NCBI GenBank assembly: GCA_029260575.1
Contig: JAJDDB010000004.1
Span: forward strand, 434,001 to 498,000
Length of the DNA: 64,000 nt
DNA from: Phycisphaerales bacterium
GTDB taxonomy: Bacteria > Planctomycetota > Phycisphaerae > Phycisphaerales > SM1A02
Reading direction: 5' to 3'
The translations under genes and the position numbers were made by a program. Under the pieces are notes generated by a model that saw only the letters and a program-made list of their open reading frames with translations, was not told where the DNA came from and searched no databases. Below, one piece after another: positions 14,907-47,305 of the stretch (positions are counted from its first letter, which is position 1; the number at the start of each line of letters is the position of its first letter).

Positions 14907-15122
14907 ATGACTGCACAAAAAGTGAAATTGATCATTGCAGTCATCGCATCGGCGTTGCTGCTGATACTCGTCGTACAGAATACTGAGCAAGTGGAAACGC
15001 GCATCTTGCTTGCGACGATCACCATGCCTCGCGCACTGTTGCTGTTTCTGATGGCGCTGACGGGATTCATCATTGGTCTGCTCGCCGCATTTTCTATTTC
15101 CAAGCGCAAGAAACCGTCGTAG
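14907..15122 (+). CDS. LapA-like (DUF1049) small membrane protein
   Basis: A 71-residue protein with two hydrophobic helices: residues about 7-25 (LIIAVIASALLLILVV) and 42-63 (ALLLFLMALTGFIIGLLAAF), separated by QNTEQVETRILLATITMPR and ending in a basic SKRKKPS tail. This is the layout of the LapA/DUF1049 family, named for a lipopolysaccharide assembly protein. Starts at ATG 14907 after an aggggattctg stretch nine bases past sufU's stop. Its place between sufU and the sufT-like gene, same strand, suggests co-transcription with the SUF operon, though a direct role in cluster assembly is not known. Confidence 0.78.
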   Translation: MTAQKVKLIIAVIASALLLILVVQNTEQVETRILLATITMPRALLLFLMALTGFIIGLLAAFSISKRKKPS

Positions 15123-15132
15123 GGGATTCGTC

Positions 15133-15534
15133 ATTCCTGAATCTAACACCCAATTGAAACAACGGATTATTGCTGCAATCCGCACCGTCAAGGATCCGGA
15201 GATTCCGATCAATTTGTATGACCTCGGGTTGATCTATGAATTGAACGTGCGCGATGGCGGCACCGTGGATATTCGTATGACGTTGACCACGCCGAACTGT
15301 CCCGTCGCCGAATCGATGCCGGGCATGGTGCATAAAGCGGTAGCGGATGTGGATGATGTGCATGCTGTTGATGTGCAGCTTGTCTGGGAGCCCGCGTGGA
15401 CGGGTGAGATGATGACCGAGGATGCCCGCGACACGCTGGAGATGATGGGCATTTCCTGGCGTGATCCGCATTCGAGCGCCGGGCCGACTTCGCTGACGGT
15501 TGGTCGCACGGATCGCCACGGCAAGCGGCGCTAA
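15133..15534 (+). CDS. sufT: SufT-like MIP18/DUF59 iron-sulfur protein
   Basis: About 133 residues with the DUF59 core: TVKDPEIPINLYDLGLIYEL, then DIRMTLTTPNCPVAESMPG, in which the conserved Cys follows the T-T-P-N motif, then VQLVWEPAWTGEMMTEDAR. The family (SufT, MIP18/CIA2) takes part in iron-sulfur cluster maturation, matching its place at the end of the SUF operon. The start is unusual: no ATG or GTG lies between lapA's stop and the homologous region. I chose ATT at 15133 because aggggattcgtc precedes it as aggggattctg precedes lapA. Alternatives are ATG 15073, overlapping lapA by 50 bases, or TTG 15154. Confidence 0.85.
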   Translation: MPESNTQLKQRIIAAIRTVKDPEIPINLYDLGLIYELNVRDGGTVDIRMTLTTPNCPVAESMPGMVHKAVADVDDVHAVDVQLVWEPAWTGEMMTEDARDTLEMMGISWRDPHSSAGPTSLTVGRTDRHGKRR

Positions 15535-15569
15535 GCGAGATCGTCCTGTCGCAATTGGAATCGTGAAGG

Positions 15570-15632
15570 CCGTCCGTCCGCCCGTGGCGGGAAGGGGAGG
15601 ATCTACCGCCACGGGCTCTCGTGGACGGACGG
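15570..15632. terminator. Long imperfect hairpin after the SUF operon
   Basis: ccgtccgtccgcccgtggcgg at 15570-15590 is complementary to ccgccacgggc (15606-15616) plus ggacggacgg (15623-15632), with a 6-base bulge tctcgt between the two blocks. The loop is about 15 bases. It begins 36 bases after the sufT-like stop and probably ends or stabilises the suf transcript. No T-tract follows. The remaining 180 bases up to the sigma factor gene show no further gene. Confidence 0.5.
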
Positions 15633-15813
15633 AGTGAGGCTGCAAAGGCACAGGGGACACTCCCGGTGGCTGAGTCTTCGCATCCGGAGGCCGCTGTCGT
15701 GTCCTACGTGCATATGTGTCCAACAAGGCGGCATCTTGCAGCGGCTGTGATGCTGTTTTTACGCAATAGTTCGTTGCGAGCAGGACATTGGTGTAGTGGG
15801 AGGCAGCGTGTAG

Positions 15814-16431
15814 ATGCGGGATGCCGAGCAACAACACTCCGTTGATACAGTGTCGGATCGGCTGGACAGTCAGCAGTTTGCTGCGCTGTTCGAGCAGTCG
15901 TGGCGGACGCTTTGGACGATCGGCGTTGCGGTGCTCGGCAGGCGCGATGCTGTTGAAGATGTGCTGCAGGAATCCGCATTGATCGCACTGGGCAAGCTGG
16001 ACGACTTTGATCCAACGACGAGCTTCATCGCGTGGATGGGACAGATCGTGCGCTATACAGCGCTCAATTCGGGTCGACGGCGACAGCGCCGCAGCGCGAT
16101 GACGGCAGGGAGTAATGGAGTACTCGAACACACAGCTGCCCCGGAGTCATCAAGTGCAAATCGATTCAACGGCACCGTGCCGGCGAAGATGGAAGTGGAT
16201 CAACTGGGCTTTGATGATCAACTGCTCGATTGCATGATGCGGCTGAGCGAATCGCAGCGCACGTGTCTGCTGCTTCGCGTGGTCAATGGTTATTCCTATC
16301 GCGAGATTGCAGGGGCAATGGATATGCCGGAGGGAACTGCGATGAGCCATGTGCATCGAGCACAGAAGTCGCTCCGAGAGATGATCGGACAATCACTACT
16401 GGCAACGGGGGAGAAGGGAGCGCGTCGATGA
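15814..16431 (+). CDS. ECF-type RNA polymerase sigma factor
   Basis: A 205-residue sigma-70 family protein with only regions 2 and 4. Region 2 is visible as WRTLWTIGVAVLGRRDAVED followed by VLQESALIALGKL. Region 4 has LSESQRTCLLLRVVNGYSYR then EIAGAMDMPEGTAMSHVHRA, the helix-turn-helix that reads the -35 element. The linker between them is long and Ser/Ala-rich. The layout resembles the planctomycete/Verrucomicrobium ECF group. A gggagg stretch lies ten bases before the ATG. The stop overlaps the next gene (ATGA), which encodes a probable membrane anti-sigma factor. Target promoters are unknown. Confidence 0.9.
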   Translation: MRDAEQQHSVDTVSDRLDSQQFAALFEQSWRTLWTIGVAVLGRRDAVEDVLQESALIALGKLDDFDPTTSFIAWMGQIVRYTALNSGRRRQRRSAMTAGSNGVLEHTAAPESSSANRFNGTVPAKMEVDQLGFDDQLLDCMMRLSESQRTCLLLRVVNGYSYREIAGAMDMPEGTAMSHVHRAQKSLREMIGQSLLATGEKGARR

Positions 16432-20912: not shown

Positions 20913-21150
20913 TTGTATTGGTGAACCGCTGTTGTTTATATTCAAACCCAAGTCGTGTCGGCCTGTAACAATTAGGCGTTTTATTGGTGTCTGTTGCGCC
21001 TGGACAAGAGTTGGCTGATAGGACGGCGCATTCCCCGCAAGTTCACGAGATAGCGCACAGCCTCCTTGCGTCGGCAGGTTGAGGTTCGCATGCTCAGATC
21101 AGACGTGCAGCGCAAATCATGCGCCGCAGTTGCGGAAAGGTATGCACACA

Positions 21151-23652
21151 ATGCGACGACCCGAAGTCCAGCCAAGCCAGCGGCAATTCGTGAGCAATCT
21201 GATTGATGGAATTGTTGAGCACGTGTCATCATCGATTCGCAGTGCATCTCCCGTGAAGCTGCGTGTGCTTGTGGGGTTGAGCGCGCTGTTGCTCATGCTC
21301 GTGTCATTCCGATCGGCGTTGGCTGAGACGACTGCGCCAGCTGTTGATTCGCCGATCATGATTCAGGTTGCGCTGACGAATCCGGCTGAGCAACTTGAAT
21401 TGAAGTCTGCTGCACGAGCGGAACTGATGGGCGCTGTTACAGAAAAGATGGCACAGACGGCTGCGGCGCATCCTGACAGCGTGCTCGTATTGCGTGTTCG
21501 GCCTGGGGCGCTTCGCTTCAATCGCCTGTCGCAAGAAATGCAAGAGCAGTTGATCAAGACGCACGGCAGCGACGCAGCGCAATGGTATGAGCAGTCATTG
21601 GCAACGCTGCTGCACGCAATGCTTCAGAATGCGCACGGCCAGCATTCCGAATCGTCATTCAGTGTCTACGGACTTCCGATCGAAGGACGCCCAGCTGGCG
21701 TTGCTGCGACGAATGCACGGTACGCAGCGATTGTGCAGCAGATTGATGTTCTGGTTGCGGGATGGAAACCGATTGTTTCACATGCTGATGCAGGAACAGC
21801 ATCCGCGGTTGAACAACGGCTACCCGCCGCGATGCTGTCCCGTTCCGGTAGGTTGTTGTATTACCGCATGAACTCGCAATGGCGCGTATACGGCGGAAAT
21901 GCTCCAACATCGCAACGCACCGGCCACACTGCGCAGGACGCTGTGACAGCGCGGGCGATGGACATGCTGGCTCGTAACCCCGATCTGGTATCCATCCTGA
22001 AACAGCACGGCATCGATCCAGCGCAGCTCGCAAGCACGCTCGATGAATACGATCAACTTGATCTGTTGGCATTACTTGCGGACTGGGGTGTTGCAAATTC
22101 GCAGTGGGACCTAAACGGCGACGGGACAGTCAACATCTTTGATCTCTTGGAACTGCTTGCCAGTTGGAACGAGCCGGATGCGCCGGATTCGGGAATCGCG
22201 CGTTTCGCTGCGATGGACAGTGAATATGTGATCGGCTCGGGCGTGCTTATCAGTGTGGAGTTGCTCGCTGATGCTCCGAGCGGTGCTGATGTGGTTTTCC
22301 AGACATGGTCTGACGTCTCCAGTTCGATAGAGTCGGCATATCACGACACTTCGGCACCGTTTGAATACCCAACCGGCGCGTTGGATCACGTTACGCCGGG
22401 GCCGGCGGAAATTCAGGCACTTGTTCGTGATGCGCAGGATCAGGTCGTGCTGCGTCTGACCGCTCGAATTGAATTTGTCCTGGATCCCGGTGGAGACGAT
22501 GATCCTGACGACAACGGCGAAGATGATCCGCCGGTCGATGATCCATTGCCTGCACCGGATGATGGTGATGATGCGGGCGATGACTGGTCCGGCCTGTTTG
22601 TTGACCTTGATGAATCGCTGGTCGCACATCTCCAGCCAATTGACTTGCCAACCCAACCGCAACTCGACAACCCACGACAGTTCGACATTCACAGTCCCGG
22701 CGATATTCCCAATCCGATCCCAAGCAATAGCGTCTTGACAGTACATCGCGACATTGAGTTGCCGGACGCCAATGCTGGTTTCGTGTTCAATCAAGGTGCG
22801 TCTGATGTGCTTGTGCAGTTTGCACAGGGCGCGCAGATTCAATACACCGGCGGCTTCTCCGATCGCGCTGTGTTTCAATTTCGCAGCAGCGCAGCACGCA
22901 TCCGAATCGAAAATGCGGTGATTACAGGCCCGACCGGTACGCGCAATACCTGTCACGGGTTTGCGACAATGCTCGGCAGTGGTACGTGCTCAGACATCAC
23001 CATCGTCGGAGGCGAAGTCAGCGGCGTACGGTATACCTTCCAGGGCGAAGGCGGCTGCGAGCGATTGCTCATCACCGGCGTGCGTGCGCACAGCAACTGG
23101 GAGTATTTCGTCTGGGGTTCGAACACGATGAACAACGTCACGATCTGTCACAACACAGTCGATGGCGTTGAGGTGCAGCACGGCATCCGTCTCGCGCCGG
23201 GCGTGGTTGGTGTGAATATTGTTTCCAACGACATTCGTGTTGGGCAGCAGGGTCTGATCAAACGTTCGATCTGGATTGCTGGTGCGTACAACGTCACGAT
23301 CGTGGACAATCACACGCGCGATGGGCGCATTACCATCGGGCCGAATCCAGCGTTCAATGAACCGGGGCCTCGCGCTGTTGTGCTGGCGGGAAACACGATT
23401 GACCATGATCGAAACAATCTCGCGATTGAATTGTTCAGCGGGACTCGAAGTGTTCTAGTTTCAGGCAATACGGTGACGACGCCGCATTCCAATTGGATGC
23501 AGGTTGGTGTTACTGACCAGTTCAACAGGCCGTTTGAGGATATTCACTGGACGCAGGACAACATCGCCAACGACATTGAAAGGCATGGATTCGACGGGAT
23601 TCGCGTTTCGGCGGCATATGTCGGCCAGTCTGATATCGGACCCGTCGATTGA
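21151..23652 (+). CDS. Exported dockerin-like and parallel beta-helix protein
   Basis: An 833-residue secreted protein. A long-n-region signal ends near SALLLMLVSFRSALAETT. Residues about 320-337 hold DLNGDGTVNIFDLLELLASW, a dockerin-type EF-hand repeat typical of Phycisphaerae, preceded by a degenerate partner, DLLALLADW. An acidic Asp/Pro-rich linker (about residues 448-486) leads to a C-terminal right-handed beta-helix from about 600, with repeated I-x-x-N-x-I/V steps such as VTICHNTVDGV and VLVSGNTVTTP. This resembles polysaccharide lyases and other pectate-lyase-fold proteins. It stands at the head of the polysaccharide cluster and may trim or bind that polymer. The start at 21151 fits ggaaagg spacing better than ATG 21142. 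Confidence 0.75.
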   Translation: MRRPEVQPSQRQFVSNLIDGIVEHVSSSIRSASPVKLRVLVGLSALLLMLVSFRSALAETTAPAVDSPIMIQVALTNPAEQLELKSAARAELMGAVTEKMAQTAAAHPDSVLVLRVRPGALRFNRLSQEMQEQLIKTHGSDAAQWYEQSLATLLHAMLQNAHGQHSESSFSVYGLPIEGRPAGVAATNARYAAIVQQIDVLVAGWKPIVSHADAGTASAVEQRLPAAMLSRSGRLLYYRMNSQWRVYGGNAPTSQRTGHTAQDAVTARAMDMLARNPDLVSILKQHGIDPAQLASTLDEYDQLDLLALLADWGVANSQWDLNGDGTVNIFDLLELLASWNEPDAPDSGIARFAAMDSEYVIGSGVLISVELLADAPSGADVVFQTWSDVSSSIESAYHDTSAPFEYPTGALDHVTPGPAEIQALVRDAQDQVVLRLTARIEFVLDPGGDDDPDDNGEDDPPVDDPLPAPDDGDDAGDDWSGLFVDLDESLVAHLQPIDLPTQPQLDNPRQFDIHSPGDIPNPIPSNSVLTVHRDIELPDANAGFVFNQGASDVLVQFAQGAQIQYTGGFSDRAVFQFRSSAARIRIENAVITGPTGTRNTCHGFATMLGSGTCSDITIVGGEVSGVRYTFQGEGGCERLLITGVRAHSNWEYFVWGSNTMNNVTICHNTVDGVEVQHGIRLAPGVVGVNIVSNDIRVGQQGLIKRSIWIAGAYNVTIVDNHTRDGRITIGPNPAFNEPGPRAVVLAGNTIDHDRNNLAIELFSGTRSVLVSGNTVTTPHSNWMQVGVTDQFNRPFEDIHWTQDNIANDIERHGFDGIRVSAAYVGQSDIGPVD

Positions 23653-41733: not shown

Positions 41734-44679
41734 TCATGCAGGAACAGTCGATCGCAATGTGTTGCGTGCCGTCTTTCGTCGCGCTGTCAATTTCGACTTG
41801 AGGTATCGTCCGGTGTGACTGGTCTTGCGTTTGGCGACTTGCTCGGGCGTGCCCGTGGCAACGACTGTGCCGCCGCGGTCGCCACCCTCCGGGCCAAGAT
41901 CAATGATCCAGTCCGCGGTCTTGATGATGTCGAGGTTGTGTTCAATCACAACGAGCGTGTTGCCCTGATCTGCAAGTGACTGCAGCACGATGCCGAGCTT
42001 CTCAACATCCGCAAAGTGCAGACCGGTCGTCGGTTCATCAAGAATGTACAGCGTATGGCCGGTGGAATTGCTGCCCAGTTCACTGGCAAGCTTTATGCGC
42101 TGCGCCTCACCGCCGGACAATGTTGTCGACGGTTGGCCGATCTGAATGTAATCAAGGCCGACATCGTGTAGGCAGCGCAACATGCGCTTTGTTCGAGCAT
42201 GTGCATCAAAGAAATCAACCGCATCTTCAACGGTCATATTCAGCACATCCGCAATCGTTTTATTGCGATACGTGATTTCCAACGTTTCGCGGTTGTAACG
42301 CCGGCCGCGACAAACTTCACATTGCACAAAGACATCGGGCAGAAAATGCATCTCGATCTTCTTGACGCCCTGGCCCTGGCATGCTTCGCAGCGACCGCCC
42401 TTCACGTTGAAACTGAATCGCCCGGGCAGATATCCGCGAATTTTTGCTTCACGCGTCTGGGCAAACAGCTTGCGGATATCATCAAACACACCGGTGTATG
42501 TTGCAGGGTTGGACCGTGGCGTGCGCCCGATGGGAGATTGATCAACTTCAATAACCCGGTCGATCTTGCCGAGCCCGTTGACGCGCGTATGTGCGCCGGG
42601 TGCAACTCGTGAGTGATACACCTTGCGCTTGGCAGCCTTGAGCAGGATCTCATTGACAAGCGTGCTCTTGCCGGAGCCGGAGACACCGGTGACGCAGACG
42701 ATCCCGCCGATCGGCACGGCAACATCGATCGACTTGAGGTTGTTTGCGCGCGCGCCTTTAATGACAACCGCATCGGATTCATCAACATCGCGGCGCTCCT
42801 TTGGCGTTTCGATGAAACGTTCGCCCGAGAGAAACTGCCCGGTCGTTGACGACTTCGTTGCAATGATGTCGTTGATGTCGCCCTGGGCTGCAACGGTCCC
42901 GCCGTGCCGTCCGGGTCCGGGGCCGATGTCAATAATGTGATCAGCTGCCTGCATCATGCCTTCATCGTGCTCGACAACGACAACCGTGTTGCCGATGTCT
43001 GCGAGATTGCGGAGCGTTGCGATGAGACGATCATTATCACGTTGATGCAAACCGATTGTCGGTTCATCGAGCACGTAACACACGCCGACGAGACCGGACC
43101 CGACCTGGGTTGCAAGGCGAATGCGTTGGGCTTCGCCGCCGGAAAGTGTTCCGCTCGTGCGGTCAAGAGTGAGATAATTCAGACCGACTGATTGCAGAAA
43201 GCCGAGGCGATTGCGTATCTCGCGAAGAATCGGTTCTGCAATGTGCTGCTGTTCCTCGCTGAGCGCGATGTCATCGAAGAATCCTGCTGCGACATCGATC
43301 GTCATTGCAGTGATATTCGCAATGTTCACGCGCAGGCGCCCACTGCGCAGGTAGACATGTAAGGATTCTTCGCGCAGGCGAGCGCCGTTACACGCTGGGC
43401 ATGCTGTGCCGGACATGTAGTGGCGCATGCGCTCTTTGATGAAATCGCTTTCTGTATTTTCATAACGCCGATGCAGGTTTGGAACAATGCCCTCAAAAGC
43501 GAAATCAAGTCTTGCTGTATCCGTTTCCGTTGTGCCGTGCATCAGAATCTCACGGGATTTTTTCTTGAGTTGCTCAAATGGCGTGCGCCCGTCAATTTCA
43601 AGAGCGGCGCAGAATTTTCGCAACACCTTGTGGTAGTAGCGATTCATCTGCCTGCCGTTCTTACGCCACGGTTCGATGGCGCCCTCGGAAATTGACAGCG
43701 TCTGATCAGGAACGATCAGTGCTTCATCAAACTCGTTGATCGTTCCGAGTCCATCGCACTGCGGACACGCGCCGTAGGGACTGTTGAACGAGAACAGCCT
43801 CGGCTCCGGTTCATCGAGTGAACACTCCGGGTGCTCCGCACATGCAAACTTCTCGCTGAAACTGTGATCTTCCCATGCGCCGTCATTGTCCATAAGCGCA
43901 ATCATCGAACCGTCGCCGAGCTTGAGCGCGGTTTCGACTGAATCCGCAAGGCGCTGCCGGGCATCGGGCTGCACGATGACGCGATCAACAATTGCATCAA
44001 TCGTGTGCAGTTCATATCTGCCGAGTTTCAGCGGGTTGTCGCCACCTTCCTTGAGCGCATCGCGAATGTCGATGATGTTGCTGTCTACCCGGGCGCGCAC
44101 AAATCCCTGCTTGCGTAGTCCTTCGAGTACATCACTGTGATAGCCTTTCTTTCCTCTGATGACTGGAGCAGCGATCATCATCTTCGTGCCGTCCGGACGA
44201 TCAAGAAGTGCATCGACAATCTGCGTTGCGGAGCTGCGCGTGATGGGTAACCCGCAGTATCGCGGCTTCGTAGCTGTGCCACCTTCAACCTTCCAGCAGG
44301 TGGGTTGTCCGCAGCGAGCCAGAAGCAATCGAAGATAGTCGTAGATTTCAGTGGTGGTTGCGACAGTCGAACGCGGGTTGTGGCTGGCGCTACGTTGTTG
44401 AATCGCAATTGTCGGCGGTAGGCCGTCAATTGATTCAACATTTGGTTTCTGCATTTGTTGCAGGAACTGCCGGGCGTACGCGCTCAGCGATTCCATATAC
44501 TTTCGCTGGCCTTCAGCAAAAACGGTGTCGAAAGCAAGTGAACTCTTGCCTGAGCCGGACACGCCGGTAATGACGATGAGTTTATCGCGTGGAATGTCCA
44601 CATCGATGGACTGCAGGTTGTGTTCAGCAGCCCCGCGAATGCGGATGCGCGGTTGATCTGGCGTGTTCCTTGTGGCCAT
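41734..44679 (-). CDS. uvrA: Excinuclease ABC subunit A
   Basis: A 981-residue UvrA, slightly longer than the usual 940. Walker A of the first ATPase is [14 protein letters not shown] near residue 39, with [19 protein letters not shown] as the first signature. The second half has [15 protein letters not shown], then the zinc finger [38 protein letters not shown] and [17 protein letters not shown]. It recognises bulky DNA lesions and loads UvrB. One oddity is the Cys128-to-Cys142 span in QPTCW...YCGLPI: homologues carry a compact C-x-x-C-type motif or lack it. The C-terminus is a basic tail. It is divergent from the dockerin-like gene, with about 160 bases between them that hold their promoters. 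Confidence 0.96.
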
Positions 44680-44842
44680 GAATTGCGGTCATGATAGGTC
44701 GGCAGTTGGCCTGCTGTCGCATTGAGAAGAGTCTTTGGAAGCAGTTCTTTGTACGACCAATCATCTGTGGTAGGCTGGAAAGCGTCGCCGTACCTCGATG
44801 TGTCTGACAACCGATCGGTCAAATTCAATTTTGGAGCCGGCC

Positions 44843-45505
44843 ATGCGGATCATTCTTGCATTGTGTGTTCTTGCGATCGCGCCGGTTGCTGGCGGGCAAT
44901 CCTTCAACATCGACATAGGTCCCGATGGCAATCCCGCGCCGCCGGCGGCATACGCAGCAGCAGGACGGGCAGGCAACTGGTTTGTCACGGCGGCGCACAA
45001 TCAAGTGACAGTGAACAGTCTTGTCGATATTGATGGCAATGTGACCGGAGTGAGCTTCATTCAACTCGGCGGCACCGAGACGCTGTCTTTGAGCGAAGCC
45101 GCAGTGACCGGAGACGACGCAACGCTTCTCAACGACTGTCTTATCACACACACGACGATTGAAAACTGCTTGTTCTTCAGTGGACTGCAGGGCGGTACAT
45201 ACGAAGTGATCGTCTACGCGCGCATGCCAGATCAGACGGACATCATCTGCAATGCAGATGTTGATCAGGAACCGGGCAATCCGAAGAAACCAGTCGGCGG
45301 CGCGTGGACGGGAACACATGCCAACGGTGTAAGTTACAGCATCCATGTTGCGACAGTTGCAAGCGCCGGCGCACAAGCCGGCCGGCTCGGCGTGCATTCA
45401 GGTGTCCCGGCCGACGGCGATTTCGAAATCGGCGCAGCGCTGAACGGCCTGCAGATACACCGCATCGACGACTGTCCAGCGGATTGCGCAGGCGATGATG
45501 GCTAG
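44843..45505 (+). CDS. Exported dockerin-like protein, cut short by an in-frame TAG
   Basis: A 220-residue protein as annotated. ATG 44843 follows tttggag, and MRIILALCVLAIAPVAGGQS is a good signal peptide. The mature part looks like a beta-rich secreted domain (GNWFVTAAHNQVTVNSLVDI, then VIVYARMPD). The frame stops with TAG at 45503-45505 in the middle of the C-terminal dockerin-like region, directly after PADCAGDDG. Beyond the TAG the same frame continues for 44 codons with intact repeat sequence (see next feature), so the natural protein is expected to be 265 residues. Function unknown; secretion and repeat suggest a cell-surface role. Confidence 0.75.
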   Translation: MRIILALCVLAIAPVAGGQSFNIDIGPDGNPAPPAAYAAAGRAGNWFVTAAHNQVTVNSLVDIDGNVTGVSFIQLGGTETLSLSEAAVTGDDATLLNDCLITHTTIENCLFFSGLQGGTYEVIVYARMPDQTDIICNADVDQEPGNPKKPVGGAWTGTHANGVSYSIHVATVASAGAQAGRLGVHSGVPADGDFEIGAALNGLQIHRIDDCPADCAGDDG

Positions 45506-45640
45506 GTCAATGTCTTTGACCTGCTGGAGCTGCTCACCAACTGGGGGACCAGCGGGTCGGGTGCTGATATTGACGATCTGACAAACACAGTCGACGTCTT
45601 CGATCTGCTAGAATTGCTGTCTGCGTGGGGCGATTGCTGA
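45506..45640 (+). other. C-terminal dockerin-like repeat separated from its gene by one TAG codon
   Basis: Directly after the TAG, the same frame reads VNVFDLLELLTNWGT, a short Ser/Gly/Ala/Asp stretch, DLTNTVDVFDLLELLSAW and then GDC before a TGA at 45638-45640. The two DLLELL repeats with W-G-x-C at the end are exactly the C-terminal signature seen in other exported proteins of Phycisphaerae. The frame holds no other stop, so the interruption is a single codon. CAG to TAG would need one transition. Treat as a recent nonsense change, a base-call error or a read-through site. Confidence 0.8.
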
Positions 45641-45663
45641 GCGGCGCAAGATCAGGCGCGAGG

Positions 45664-46920
45664 TTAACCGACTTCGCGGCGCTGGAACAGAATAACCGCC
45701 AGCGCAAGGGCCACGATGATATAGAACCCGCCATAGAGCAACGCGCGGACAACGTAACTGATCGGTATGACATGGCCCTGTGTCAGCGCATCTGACAGCA
45801 GTAACATCTGCAGATTGGGCACAACTGAATACGCAATGCGCAATGCGATGTATGTGCTTCGTTCTTTAAGAGATCGGCTGCCAGCCTGGGCTTGCGGCGG
45901 ATCGACATACCAGCCGCGCTCCAGGTCATACACAGCTTTGGCGTTTGCGGTGAATCTGGGATCTTCGGTGTCGGTAATCACGCCGGGTGGATCAGCAAGT
46001 TCCCACAGTGATACGAGCGGAACCTGTTTCTTGACAGTGACAGGTATGGTCGACTCACCGTTGATGAGCTGAATGGACTGCTCCTCGGAAACTGTCTCGG
46101 TGAGTTCATAAAGCGCAGCACGTTGCAGCCAGTCGTTGCGCAGGTCGGCCATTGGTTCGCCGAAGAGCGAATCGGATAGCAAACCGAGGACGAACATCCC
46201 GAGCACGATGACCAGCGTCAACACCTGATTGAGGCGAGTTGAAACTGCAACTGCAATTGCGGTCAGTACAAGCAGCGCCATCACGATACAGAGCACAGCC
46301 AGCCAGACATACGGCTTGAACCCGATCGACATGGACTGCGGCGAGAAGCTTGCATCGAACAGCAGACTGAAGATGTACGCTAGCGCAGCCATTGGCGTCA
46401 TAACCACAATGACGGTGCTGGAGAACACGCGGTTGTAGAAATAGTTGCACCAGATGCCTGTGCCGACTCCGACGACTGCTGCGATGGTTGAAAAAGTGAC
46501 GACGGGAACATGGACTGGATCGCGCACGGTCTGCAGCACAGCATGCAATTCGACCAGCATGAAAACCAGCGACATGTACGTGGATGCGATGCCGATCGCA
46601 GCAGCAACGCCGACGAACTTCCCGATCACGAACAATGGTCGTCCAACAGGCTTGCTGATTACGGTGAGGACGGTCTTATTTTCGATTTCCCGTGTGAGTA
46701 CGTTTGTGGCGACGAATGCAGCCAGCAGTGTCCCTGCAAGGAAGACGGTCGCCAGGCCGATGTCGATCAGCATCCTCTGGTCGTCTTCCATCGTGAACGC
46801 GGACAGGGGGTTGCTGAGGATCAGCGCGATCGTGGCAATGACGAGAATCACCAGCATGATCGGCTGGCGAATGCTCTCGAAAAAGGTATTGCGAACGATC
46901 GCCAGGAACTGCTCAATCAT
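45664..46920 (-). CDS. ABC-2 type permease (NosY-like)
   Basis: A 418-residue membrane protein. MIEQFLAIVRNTFFESIRQP begins the ABC-2 pattern, followed by LTREIENKTVLTVISKPVGR and FVIGKFVGVAAAIGI, and several hydrophobic helices (VLTAIAVAVSTRLNQVLTLV is one). A soluble loop of about 110 residues precedes the last helices. The S-K-P-x-x-R-x-x-x-x-x-G-K-x-x-G-V segment also occurs in the permease at 53.3 kb, suggesting paralogous partners. No ATPase gene is adjacent on this strand; the ATPase at 52.1 kb is the likely partner. The frame is open 13 codons upstream of 46920. Confidence 0.85.
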   Translation of the reverse strand: MIEQFLAIVRNTFFESIRQPIMLVILVIATIALILSNPLSAFTMEDDQRMLIDIGLATVFLAGTLLAAFVATNVLTREIENKTVLTVISKPVGRPLFVIGKFVGVAAAIGIASTYMSLVFMLVELHAVLQTVRDPVHVPVVTFSTIAAVVGVGTGIWCNYFYNRVFSSTVIVVMTPMAALAYIFSLLFDASFSPQSMSIGFKPYVWLAVLCIVMALLVLTAIAVAVSTRLNQVLTLVIVLGMFVLGLLSDSLFGEPMADLRNDWLQRAALYELTETVSEEQSIQLINGESTIPVTVKKQVPLVSLWELADPPGVITDTEDPRFTANAKAVYDLERGWYVDPPQAQAGSRSLKERSTYIALRIAYSVVPNLQMLLLSDALTQGHVIPISYVVRALLYGGFYIIVALALAVILFQRREVG

Positions 46921-47305
46921 GCAAAGCCGCCAATGTCGTTGCGTCCGGCAGGGCGACACAACTGTGAGTGGATGTGAAAATGCGTCAAGTCAGGGAGATA
47001 TGCTCGTCGCATGGCGGTGAAAAACTTCAACGACCTGCGATATTTTGATCCGAAGAACTGAACCTCGAACGGGGCATCATACGTAGACCATGCTGCCGCT
47101 GTTCGCAGAGACGACCCGCCTCTGTCGAACGTGCGAATCCTTCGGTCGGTCGGTATGGTGTCAATTCGGCGACGCCGCCAGCCCGAACGTGCGGAGCAAG
47201 CGGTCGTCGGCCAGCCTGTGAGCCGAATCGCAACTCTATGTTTTACATGTCTTTATCTGAGTTGTGCGGGTCAATGAAAGTGGACGAGCCAATGGTGCTG
47301 ATCCG
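46921..47305. promoter_or_regulatory. Divergent intergenic region between the permease and SPFH genes
   Basis: A 385-base stretch without a supported gene, between divergently transcribed genes. It must hold the promoters of both. A GTG at 47264 could extend the first SPFH gene by 14 codons. I see no clear operator, strong hairpin or small gene. Confidence 0.5.

What the first reader, a model, noticed from the sequence alone, without database searches (positions are those of the whole stretch)
44843..45640. In-frame TAG splits a secreted dockerin-like protein of the Phycisphaerae type
The frame stops at TAG 45503-45505, yet the same frame continues with two intact repeat units (VNVFDLLELLTNWGT and TVDVFDLLELLSAWGDC) to a TGA at 45638. 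The join D-G-[stop]-V-N-V-F-D-L-L lies exactly where a Gln, Thr or Glu would be expected, and CAG to TAG is one transition. The retained downstream frame means a very recent mutation, a base error, a regulated read-through, or recoding that switches between a free and a surface-sorted form.
Basis: partly seen in the sequence, partly recalled or inferred. Interest (0 to 1): 0.7.

Follow-up and report, generated by a model that had tools for sequence, protein, structure and literature searches.

The report
Nonsense codon cuts off dockerin tail
A gene for a secreted, probably sugar-binding protein in an uncultured planctomycete carries one in-frame stop that cuts off its docking tail, most likely an ordinary recent nonsense mutation, although an unusually strong RNA hairpin right after the stop leaves a small chance of regulated read-through.

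Summary
The frame 44843-45502 stops at TAG 45503-45505, then stays open for 44 codons that encode two intact dockerin repeats, to TGA 45638. Read through, the protein is a probable signal peptide, a malectin/CBM-like beta-sandwich and a GC-type dockerin pair.

The genome has 95 matches (E up to 1) to that dockerin model. Seven were flagged with a stop; six are terminal, so only this one is interior. None of 25 relatives has a stop in the domain, and the 15 with dockerin-like repeats keep them in frame. UAG looks like an ordinary stop: RF1 is present, no CUA tRNA was found, no PylS passes its cut-off, and 7 of 60 sibling tails end in TAG. One other interior stop, elsewhere in the domain, turned up in a related genome.

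Best reading: a recent nonsense mutation or strain variant, less likely a consensus error, that removes the tail and leaves a free secreted module. One oddity: a 22-bp hairpin starts directly after the TAG, the most significant of 61 homologous sites, but it is absent in the two orthologues folded. Read-through is unlikely but not excluded. Ordinary overall.

The parts
44833..44836 (+). GGAG, Shine-Dalgarno-like, 6 nt before the ATG
   Evidence: read from the sequence
44843..45505 (+). truncated reading frame as the standard code reads it, 220 aa, ending in TAG
44843..44896 (+). probable signal peptide (MRIILALCVLAIAPVAGG)
   Evidence: inferred by eye from the hydrophobic N-terminus; no signal-peptide program was run
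44894..45472 (+). malectin/CBM-like beta-sandwich domain
   Evidence: AlphaFold mean pLDDT 92.2; VIA-align Z 12.8 to 2o14, 11.8 to 6a5e_A (plant receptor complex), 9.8 to human malectin, 7-8 to CBM35/36/61; 25 relatives
45473..45502 (+). start of the dockerin domain (CPADCAGDDG), left on the truncated protein
45503..45505 (+). in-frame TAG
45506..45550 (+). dockerin repeat 1 (VNVFDLLELLTNWGT)
45587..45637 (+). dockerin repeat 2 (TVDVFDLLELLSAWGDC)
45638..45640 (+). TGA that ends the frame after the tail; 23 bases separate it from the end of the convergent ORF 45664-46959 (-)
45506..45574 (+). predicted RNA hairpin with a 22-bp stem (one 4-nt bulge) that begins on the base after the TAG
   Evidence: MFE -35.1 kcal/mol, z -4.15, z -4.35 with 0 of 1000 shuffles as stable; rank 1 of 61 homologous sites; 7 of 5000 synonymous recodings as stable

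Best explanation
It is a nonsense allele of an ordinary secreted protein. The ancestral gene (44843-45640) encoded a signal peptide, a malectin/CBM-like domain and a C-terminal GC-type dockerin, the kind of tail that dozens of proteins of this organism carry. A substitution made the first codon of dockerin repeat 1 a TAG. Translation then ends with RF1 after residue 220, so the cell should export a free carbohydrate-binding-like domain without its docking or sorting tail. The tail codons are now untranslated, and they are intact because too little time has passed for them to decay. Shown: the frame, the tail, its rarity, the ordinary decoding machinery. Inferred: export, docking, loss of function, recency.
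For: Only interior stop seen among 95 dockerin matches (E up to 1) in the genome; the six others flagged with a stop run into their own terminal stop. None of 25 relatives in genome contigs has a stop in the domain; the 15 that carry dockerin-like repeats (by eye) have them in the same open frame. Tail score inside the sibling range, rank 34 of 50. RF1 (PAT motif, L107) and RF2 (SPF, L106) present. 48 tRNA matches, none with anticodon CUA. PylS: best 24.3 bits against a cut-off of 178.15. TAG ends 7 of 60 sibling dockerin genes and 9 of 54 roughly called window ORFs, this one included. The site is variable, and 9 of 78 comparable codons are one substitution from TAG. Another interior stop (TAA, different position) exists in G024 (L194), so single lesions in this domain do occur. 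Belinky et al. 2021 (PMC7918605; abstract and section 2, first part, read; [quoted passage not shown]
Against: No congener was among the 60 relatives searched, so the ancestral sense codon and the age of the change are not observed; the nearest relative is 57-58% identical. The strong hairpin right after the stop is not predicted by this reading. Two uncommon linker residues could be slight relaxation or normal variation.
Confidence: 0.76

Rival explanations
1. Consensus or assembly error, or a minority strain variant picked by the assembler: the population mostly has a sense codon and makes the full-length protein.
For: The genome is in 41 contigs, 95.3% complete, with 1.86% contamination, so a metagenome assembly is likely (inferred). 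The lesion is a single codon in an otherwise intact frame. The strong hairpin next to it may be a difficult template (inferred). Belinky et al. expected a substantial fraction of database in-frame stops to be artefacts (PMC7918605, section 2, first part read).
Against: The site lies 37 kb inside a 516,607-base contig and there is no homopolymer at it. Reads could not be consulted.
Confidence: 0.17
2. Regulated or leaky read-through: most ribosomes stop at the UAG and release a free domain, while a fraction read it with a near-cognate tRNA, helped by the hairpin, and make the tail-bearing form.
For: The hairpin 45506-45574 begins on the base after the UAG: MFE -35.1, z -4.15 to -4.92, rank 1 of 61 homologous sites (next z -2.61), 7 of 5000 synonymous recodings as stable, 13 of 8524 window segments as stable. 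The base after the stop is G, which raised read-through in an E. coli reporter study (PMC11126739, section 10 read). The stop falls at a tolerant site between domain and repeats.
Against: No such hairpin at the homologous site of the orthologues L127 (z -0.50) and L130 (z -0.47), nor after the other interior stop L194 (z +1.75). One of eight natural TAG stops of window ORFs is also followed by a fairly stable fold (z -2.99; the others -1.66 to +1.39). With the first 9 bases after the stop left open, z falls to -2.46, rank 2 of 61; over the 138 bases from the TAG to the terminal TGA z is -1.81, 9 of 200 shuffles as stable. The E. coli study found no correlation between predicted mRNA structure and read-through (PMC11126739, section 10). 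No Rfam match. No relative shares the stop.
Confidence: 0.06
3. UAG is reassigned or suppressed genome-wide.
For: None beyond the open frame itself.
Against: RF1 present; 48 tRNA matches without anticodon CUA; no PylS over its cut-off; TAG is a natural terminator of sibling genes; no other interior TAG among 95 dockerin matches.
Confidence: 0.01

Closest known systems
NCBIfam NF041540, GC-type dockerin domain-anchored proteins
   Same: C-terminal pair of VxVFDLLxLLxxWG repeats after a secreted domain; 95 matches at E up to 1 in the genome
   Different: The window gene has a TAG at the first codon of repeat 1; its 19 bits lie below the curated cut-off of 29, as do many other matches (35 of 95 pass on their own)
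[quoted passage not shown] 2021, PMC7918605)
   Same: A single stop in an otherwise intact frame
   Different: No close genome is at hand, so dN/dS before and after the stop cannot be measured
Cohesin/dockerin 'planctosome' proposed for freshwater Planctomycetes (PMC6461901; passages read)
   Same: Dockerin-bearing secreted proteins in planctomycetes outside cellulose degradation
   Different: No Pfam cohesin was found in this genome
UAG followed by a stem-loop, as in the PYLIS of methanogen methyltransferases or viral read-through elements (recalled, not from a call)
   Same: A strong predicted hairpin starts right after an in-frame UAG
   Different: No pylS over cut-off and no CUA tRNA found; hairpin absent in the two orthologues folded; no evidence of decoding
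Malectin / CBM35-like beta-sandwich domains
   Same: Fold of the N-terminal domain (Z 12.8 to 2o14, 9.8 to human malectin)
   Different: Sequence identity 6-18% in the rows shown; Foldseek's own matches were modest (best E 2.0e-5, TM-score 0.29); no Pfam family matched; ligand unknown

Membership tests
GC-type dockerin protein (NF041540) | Read-through tail matches the model over its length | tested here: inconclusive
   E 0.0014, positions 1-63 of 67, but 19 bits against the cut-off of 29; 60 of 95 matches in the genome also do not pass on their own row
GC-type dockerin protein (NF041540) | Two tandem dockerin repeats at the extreme C-terminus | tested here: met
   two helices in the model; holds only if the TAG is read through
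GC-type dockerin protein (NF041540) | Tail is translated | not testable with these tools
   needs proteomics or reads
Classical cellulosome dockerin | A cohesin partner in the genome | tested here: inconclusive
   No Pfam Cohesin (PF00963) match at E 0.01 in the own genome, 95.3% complete; divergent cohesins are not excluded
Pyrrolysine-type UAG decoding | pylS and a CUA tRNA | tested here: not met
   PylS best 24.3 bits against 178.15; 48 tRNA matches, none CUA; the genome is 95.3% complete, and an atypical tRNA could be missed
UAG reassignment (code change) | RF1 lost and TAG frequent inside genes | tested here: not met
   RF1 present; 1 interior stop among 95 dockerin matches; genes other than these were not surveyed genome-wide
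Programmed stop-codon read-through | Stop and stimulatory element conserved across relatives | tested here: not met
   0 of 25 relatives hold the stop, 15 of them with a comparable tail; hairpin absent in L127 and L130; all are distant, no congener was available
Programmed stop-codon read-through | Measured extension product | not testable with these tools
   needs a reporter or proteomics

The most novel reading that the evidence does not exclude
The UAG with its adjoining 22-bp hairpin is a bacterial read-through switch that makes two forms of one secreted lectin-like protein: a free form, and a minor dockerin-tailed, surface-sorted form.
Probability: 0.06. Interest if true: 0.75.

Novelty: new member of a known kind. 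Interest (0 to 1): 0.2.

Why it matters
As an ordinary nonsense allele it matters little beyond one gene: it suggests that a dockerin tail can be lost in one step in a sampled strain. If the stop were leaky by design, it would be an unusual chromosomal bacterial case of read-through controlling protein sorting, and the hairpin makes that cheaply testable. The context is of more general use: a genome with dozens of dockerin-tailed proteins and no Pfam-recognisable cohesin, so what these tails dock to is open.

Tried and rejected
Genetic-code change or suppressor: rejected after the tRNA, RF1, PylS and sibling-stop checks. Re-initiation to make the tail as a separate peptide: read by eye, the tail frame has no ATG or GTG and a single TTG near its end (CTG codons, rare starts, were not considered), so rejected. 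Decay of the tail: leave-one-out profile, no clear sign. Interior stops as a habit of this domain: seven matches flagged in the own genome, six terminal; in three relatives picked for their many tails (160 matches found, the printed list was cut) six flagged, five terminal and one (L194, TAA) interior. Four further stops flagged (own C6, G030 twice, G054) are terminal. Intrinsic terminator at the hairpin: none found. Rfam: nothing in 44700-45800 at E 1. Pfam: nothing for the read-through, truncated or tail protein. Solved-structure sequence search: 3 weak rows, best E 0.014. The structure rows include sugar-binding-like domains of insecticidal and clostridial toxins; that is a shared common fold and I draw nothing from it. 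My first dockerin regular expression printed no motif and was replaced; one search also missed RF1 because only one strand was read, found. Papers: 'GC-type dockerin' gave 0 papers; 'dockerin' with 'Phycisphaer' gave 4, of which I read passages of one; 'dockerin' with 'Planctomycetes' 24 and with 'CTERM' 3, listings only apart from that same paper; read-through searches were seen as listings, apart from PMC7918605 and PMC11126739.

Full report
What is there. The + strand frame from ATG 44843 ends at TAG 45503-45505 (220 residues). The same frame then runs 44 codons to TGA 45638-45640 and encodes two dockerin repeats. A GGAG lies 6 bases before the ATG. The left neighbour is a UvrA-like ORF on the other strand (41734-44679; the name is recalled from its sequence, no family search was run on it). 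The right neighbour is convergent and ends at 45664. The full frame thus ends 23 bases before its neighbour, which fits TGA 45638 as the ancestral end.

What the protein is. The read-through product has a hydrophobic N-terminus, a domain of about 190 residues, and a tail that matches NCBIfam NF041540, the GC-type dockerin, at E 0.0014 but below the curated cut-off; Pfam matched nothing. AlphaFold on 23 aligned sequences gives mean pLDDT 92.2 and pTM 0.79. In VIA-align the domain pairs with malectin-like and CBM-like beta-sandwiches: Z 12.8 to 2o14, 11.8 to 6a5e_A, 9.8 to human malectin and 7-8 to CBM35, CBM36 and CBM61; the tool warns that Z under 8 may mean only a common arrangement, and Foldseek's own best match was modest (E 2.0e-5, TM-score 0.29). 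A carbohydrate-binding role is an inference from the fold only.

Relatives. A scan of genome contigs with the domain alignment returned 25 loci, two of them near-identical (L143, L144). By eye, 11 of 25 carry a dockerin-like pair directly after the domain, 4 carry dockerin-like repeats in a longer array or after another region (L129, L131, L133, L147), 3 end in a PEP-CTERM-like tail, 3 in a T9SS-like tail and 4 in something else; these labels are recalled, not from a model. None of the 25 has a stop inside the domain, and in the 15 with dockerin-like repeats the frame is open into them. The tail therefore looks like a swappable sorting module. The nearest relative is 57-58% identical (L005, L127; both on a contig of 7866 bases titled Phycisphaerales bacterium PMV_1.43, and G003 is in the window genome's family, which is how I infer the lineage). 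No congener was among the 60 relatives searched (36 of the same family, each in another genus, and 24 of the same order).

Rarity. The own genome holds 95 matches to the dockerin model at E up to 1, some of them partial or several per protein. Seven are flagged with a stop. Reading the other six shows that each runs into its own terminal stop, so the window's TAG is the only interior one seen. In three related genomes with many tails (G003, G030, G024; 160 matches found, printed list cut) six rows were flagged; five were terminal and one, in G024 (L194), is an interior TAA at another position. Interior stops in this domain are thus sporadic, on the order of one per hundred matches.

The site. 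In 78 other repeat units of the genome that fit a motif, the residue at the TAG position is Val 31, Thr 12, Ala 9, Ile 6, Gln 4, Ser 4, Leu 4, Asp 3, Glu 3, Phe 1, Asn 1. It is a tolerant position, and 9 of the 78 codons are one substitution from TAG.

Decoding. Aragorn on 47 loci that cover the 48 tRNA matches found no anticodon CUA. One class I release factor has SPF (RF2) and another PAT (RF1) before the GGQ region. The best PylS match is 24.3 bits against a cut-off of 178.15. TAG ends 7 of 60 sibling dockerin genes and 9 of 54 roughly called window ORFs, this gene among them. UAG looks like an ordinary stop here, with the caveat that the assembly is 95.3% complete.

State of the tail. In a leave-one-out profile of 50 of 61 collected tails the window tail ranks 34 with 81.9 bits (range 46.1-94.2). 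Two linker residues are uncommon: Asp where 37 of 42 tails have Ala, and Leu where 31 of 42 have Pro (the window tail is one of the 42). The tail is not visibly decayed. With 44 codons and no close relative, recency is an inference.

The hairpin. The 75 bases from the TAG fold into a hairpin with a 22-bp stem that starts on the base after the stop: -35.1 kcal/mol, z -4.15 with 0 of 200 shuffles as stable, z -4.35 with 0 of 1000. Among the homologous 75 bases of 61 sites it ranks first, z -4.92 against -2.61 for the next. Of 5000 synonymous recodings with window codon usage 7 are as stable, and so are 13 of 8524 segments of the window. Against this: over the 138 bases from the TAG to the terminal TGA z is -1.81; with the 9 bases after the stop left open z is -2.46, rank 2 of 61; no such hairpin is found in orthologues L127 and L130 or after the interior stop L194, and one of eight natural TAG stops in the window is itself followed by a fold of z -2.99. 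The tests were chosen after the fold had been seen. A systematic E. coli study found that G after the stop raises read-through but found no correlation with predicted mRNA structure (PMC11126739, section 10 and passages read). I treat the hairpin as a suggestive coincidence, set against a low prior for programmed read-through.

Conclusion. A nonsense mutation in the sampled strain, or less likely a consensus error, explains everything but the hairpin. The truncated product should still be exported as a free domain (inferred). In-frame stops are reported to be widespread and short-lived in bacterial genes (PMC7918605, abstract and first part of section 2 read). Read-through remains possible but has no support from conservation.

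Noticed in passing
own genome, 95 places: Dozens of proteins carry a GC-type dockerin (35 of the 95 rows pass the cut-off on their own), yet no Pfam cohesin (PF00963) is found at E 0.01; the docking partner is unknown.
   Followed up: partly
L194 (G024:C497:2200-3300): A related genome has a dockerin domain with an interior TAA in its first repeat (LLLMLG*WNN), another sporadic lesion of the same domain.
   Followed up: partly
window 22048-22173 (L074): The 857-aa ORF at 21079-23652 holds dockerin-like repeats in the middle of the protein rather than at its end.
   Followed up: no
L132, L138, L151, L143-L145: The same malectin/CBM-like domain carries different C-terminal tails in different lineages (PEP-CTERM-like, T9SS-like, dockerin), a natural set for comparing sorting systems; labels by eye.
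   Followed up: no
window 15556-15645: The most stable 75-base folds in the scan of the window, on both strands (-45.0 and -43.9 kcal/mol), lie here, inside the ORF 15094-16131 (-).
   Followed up: no
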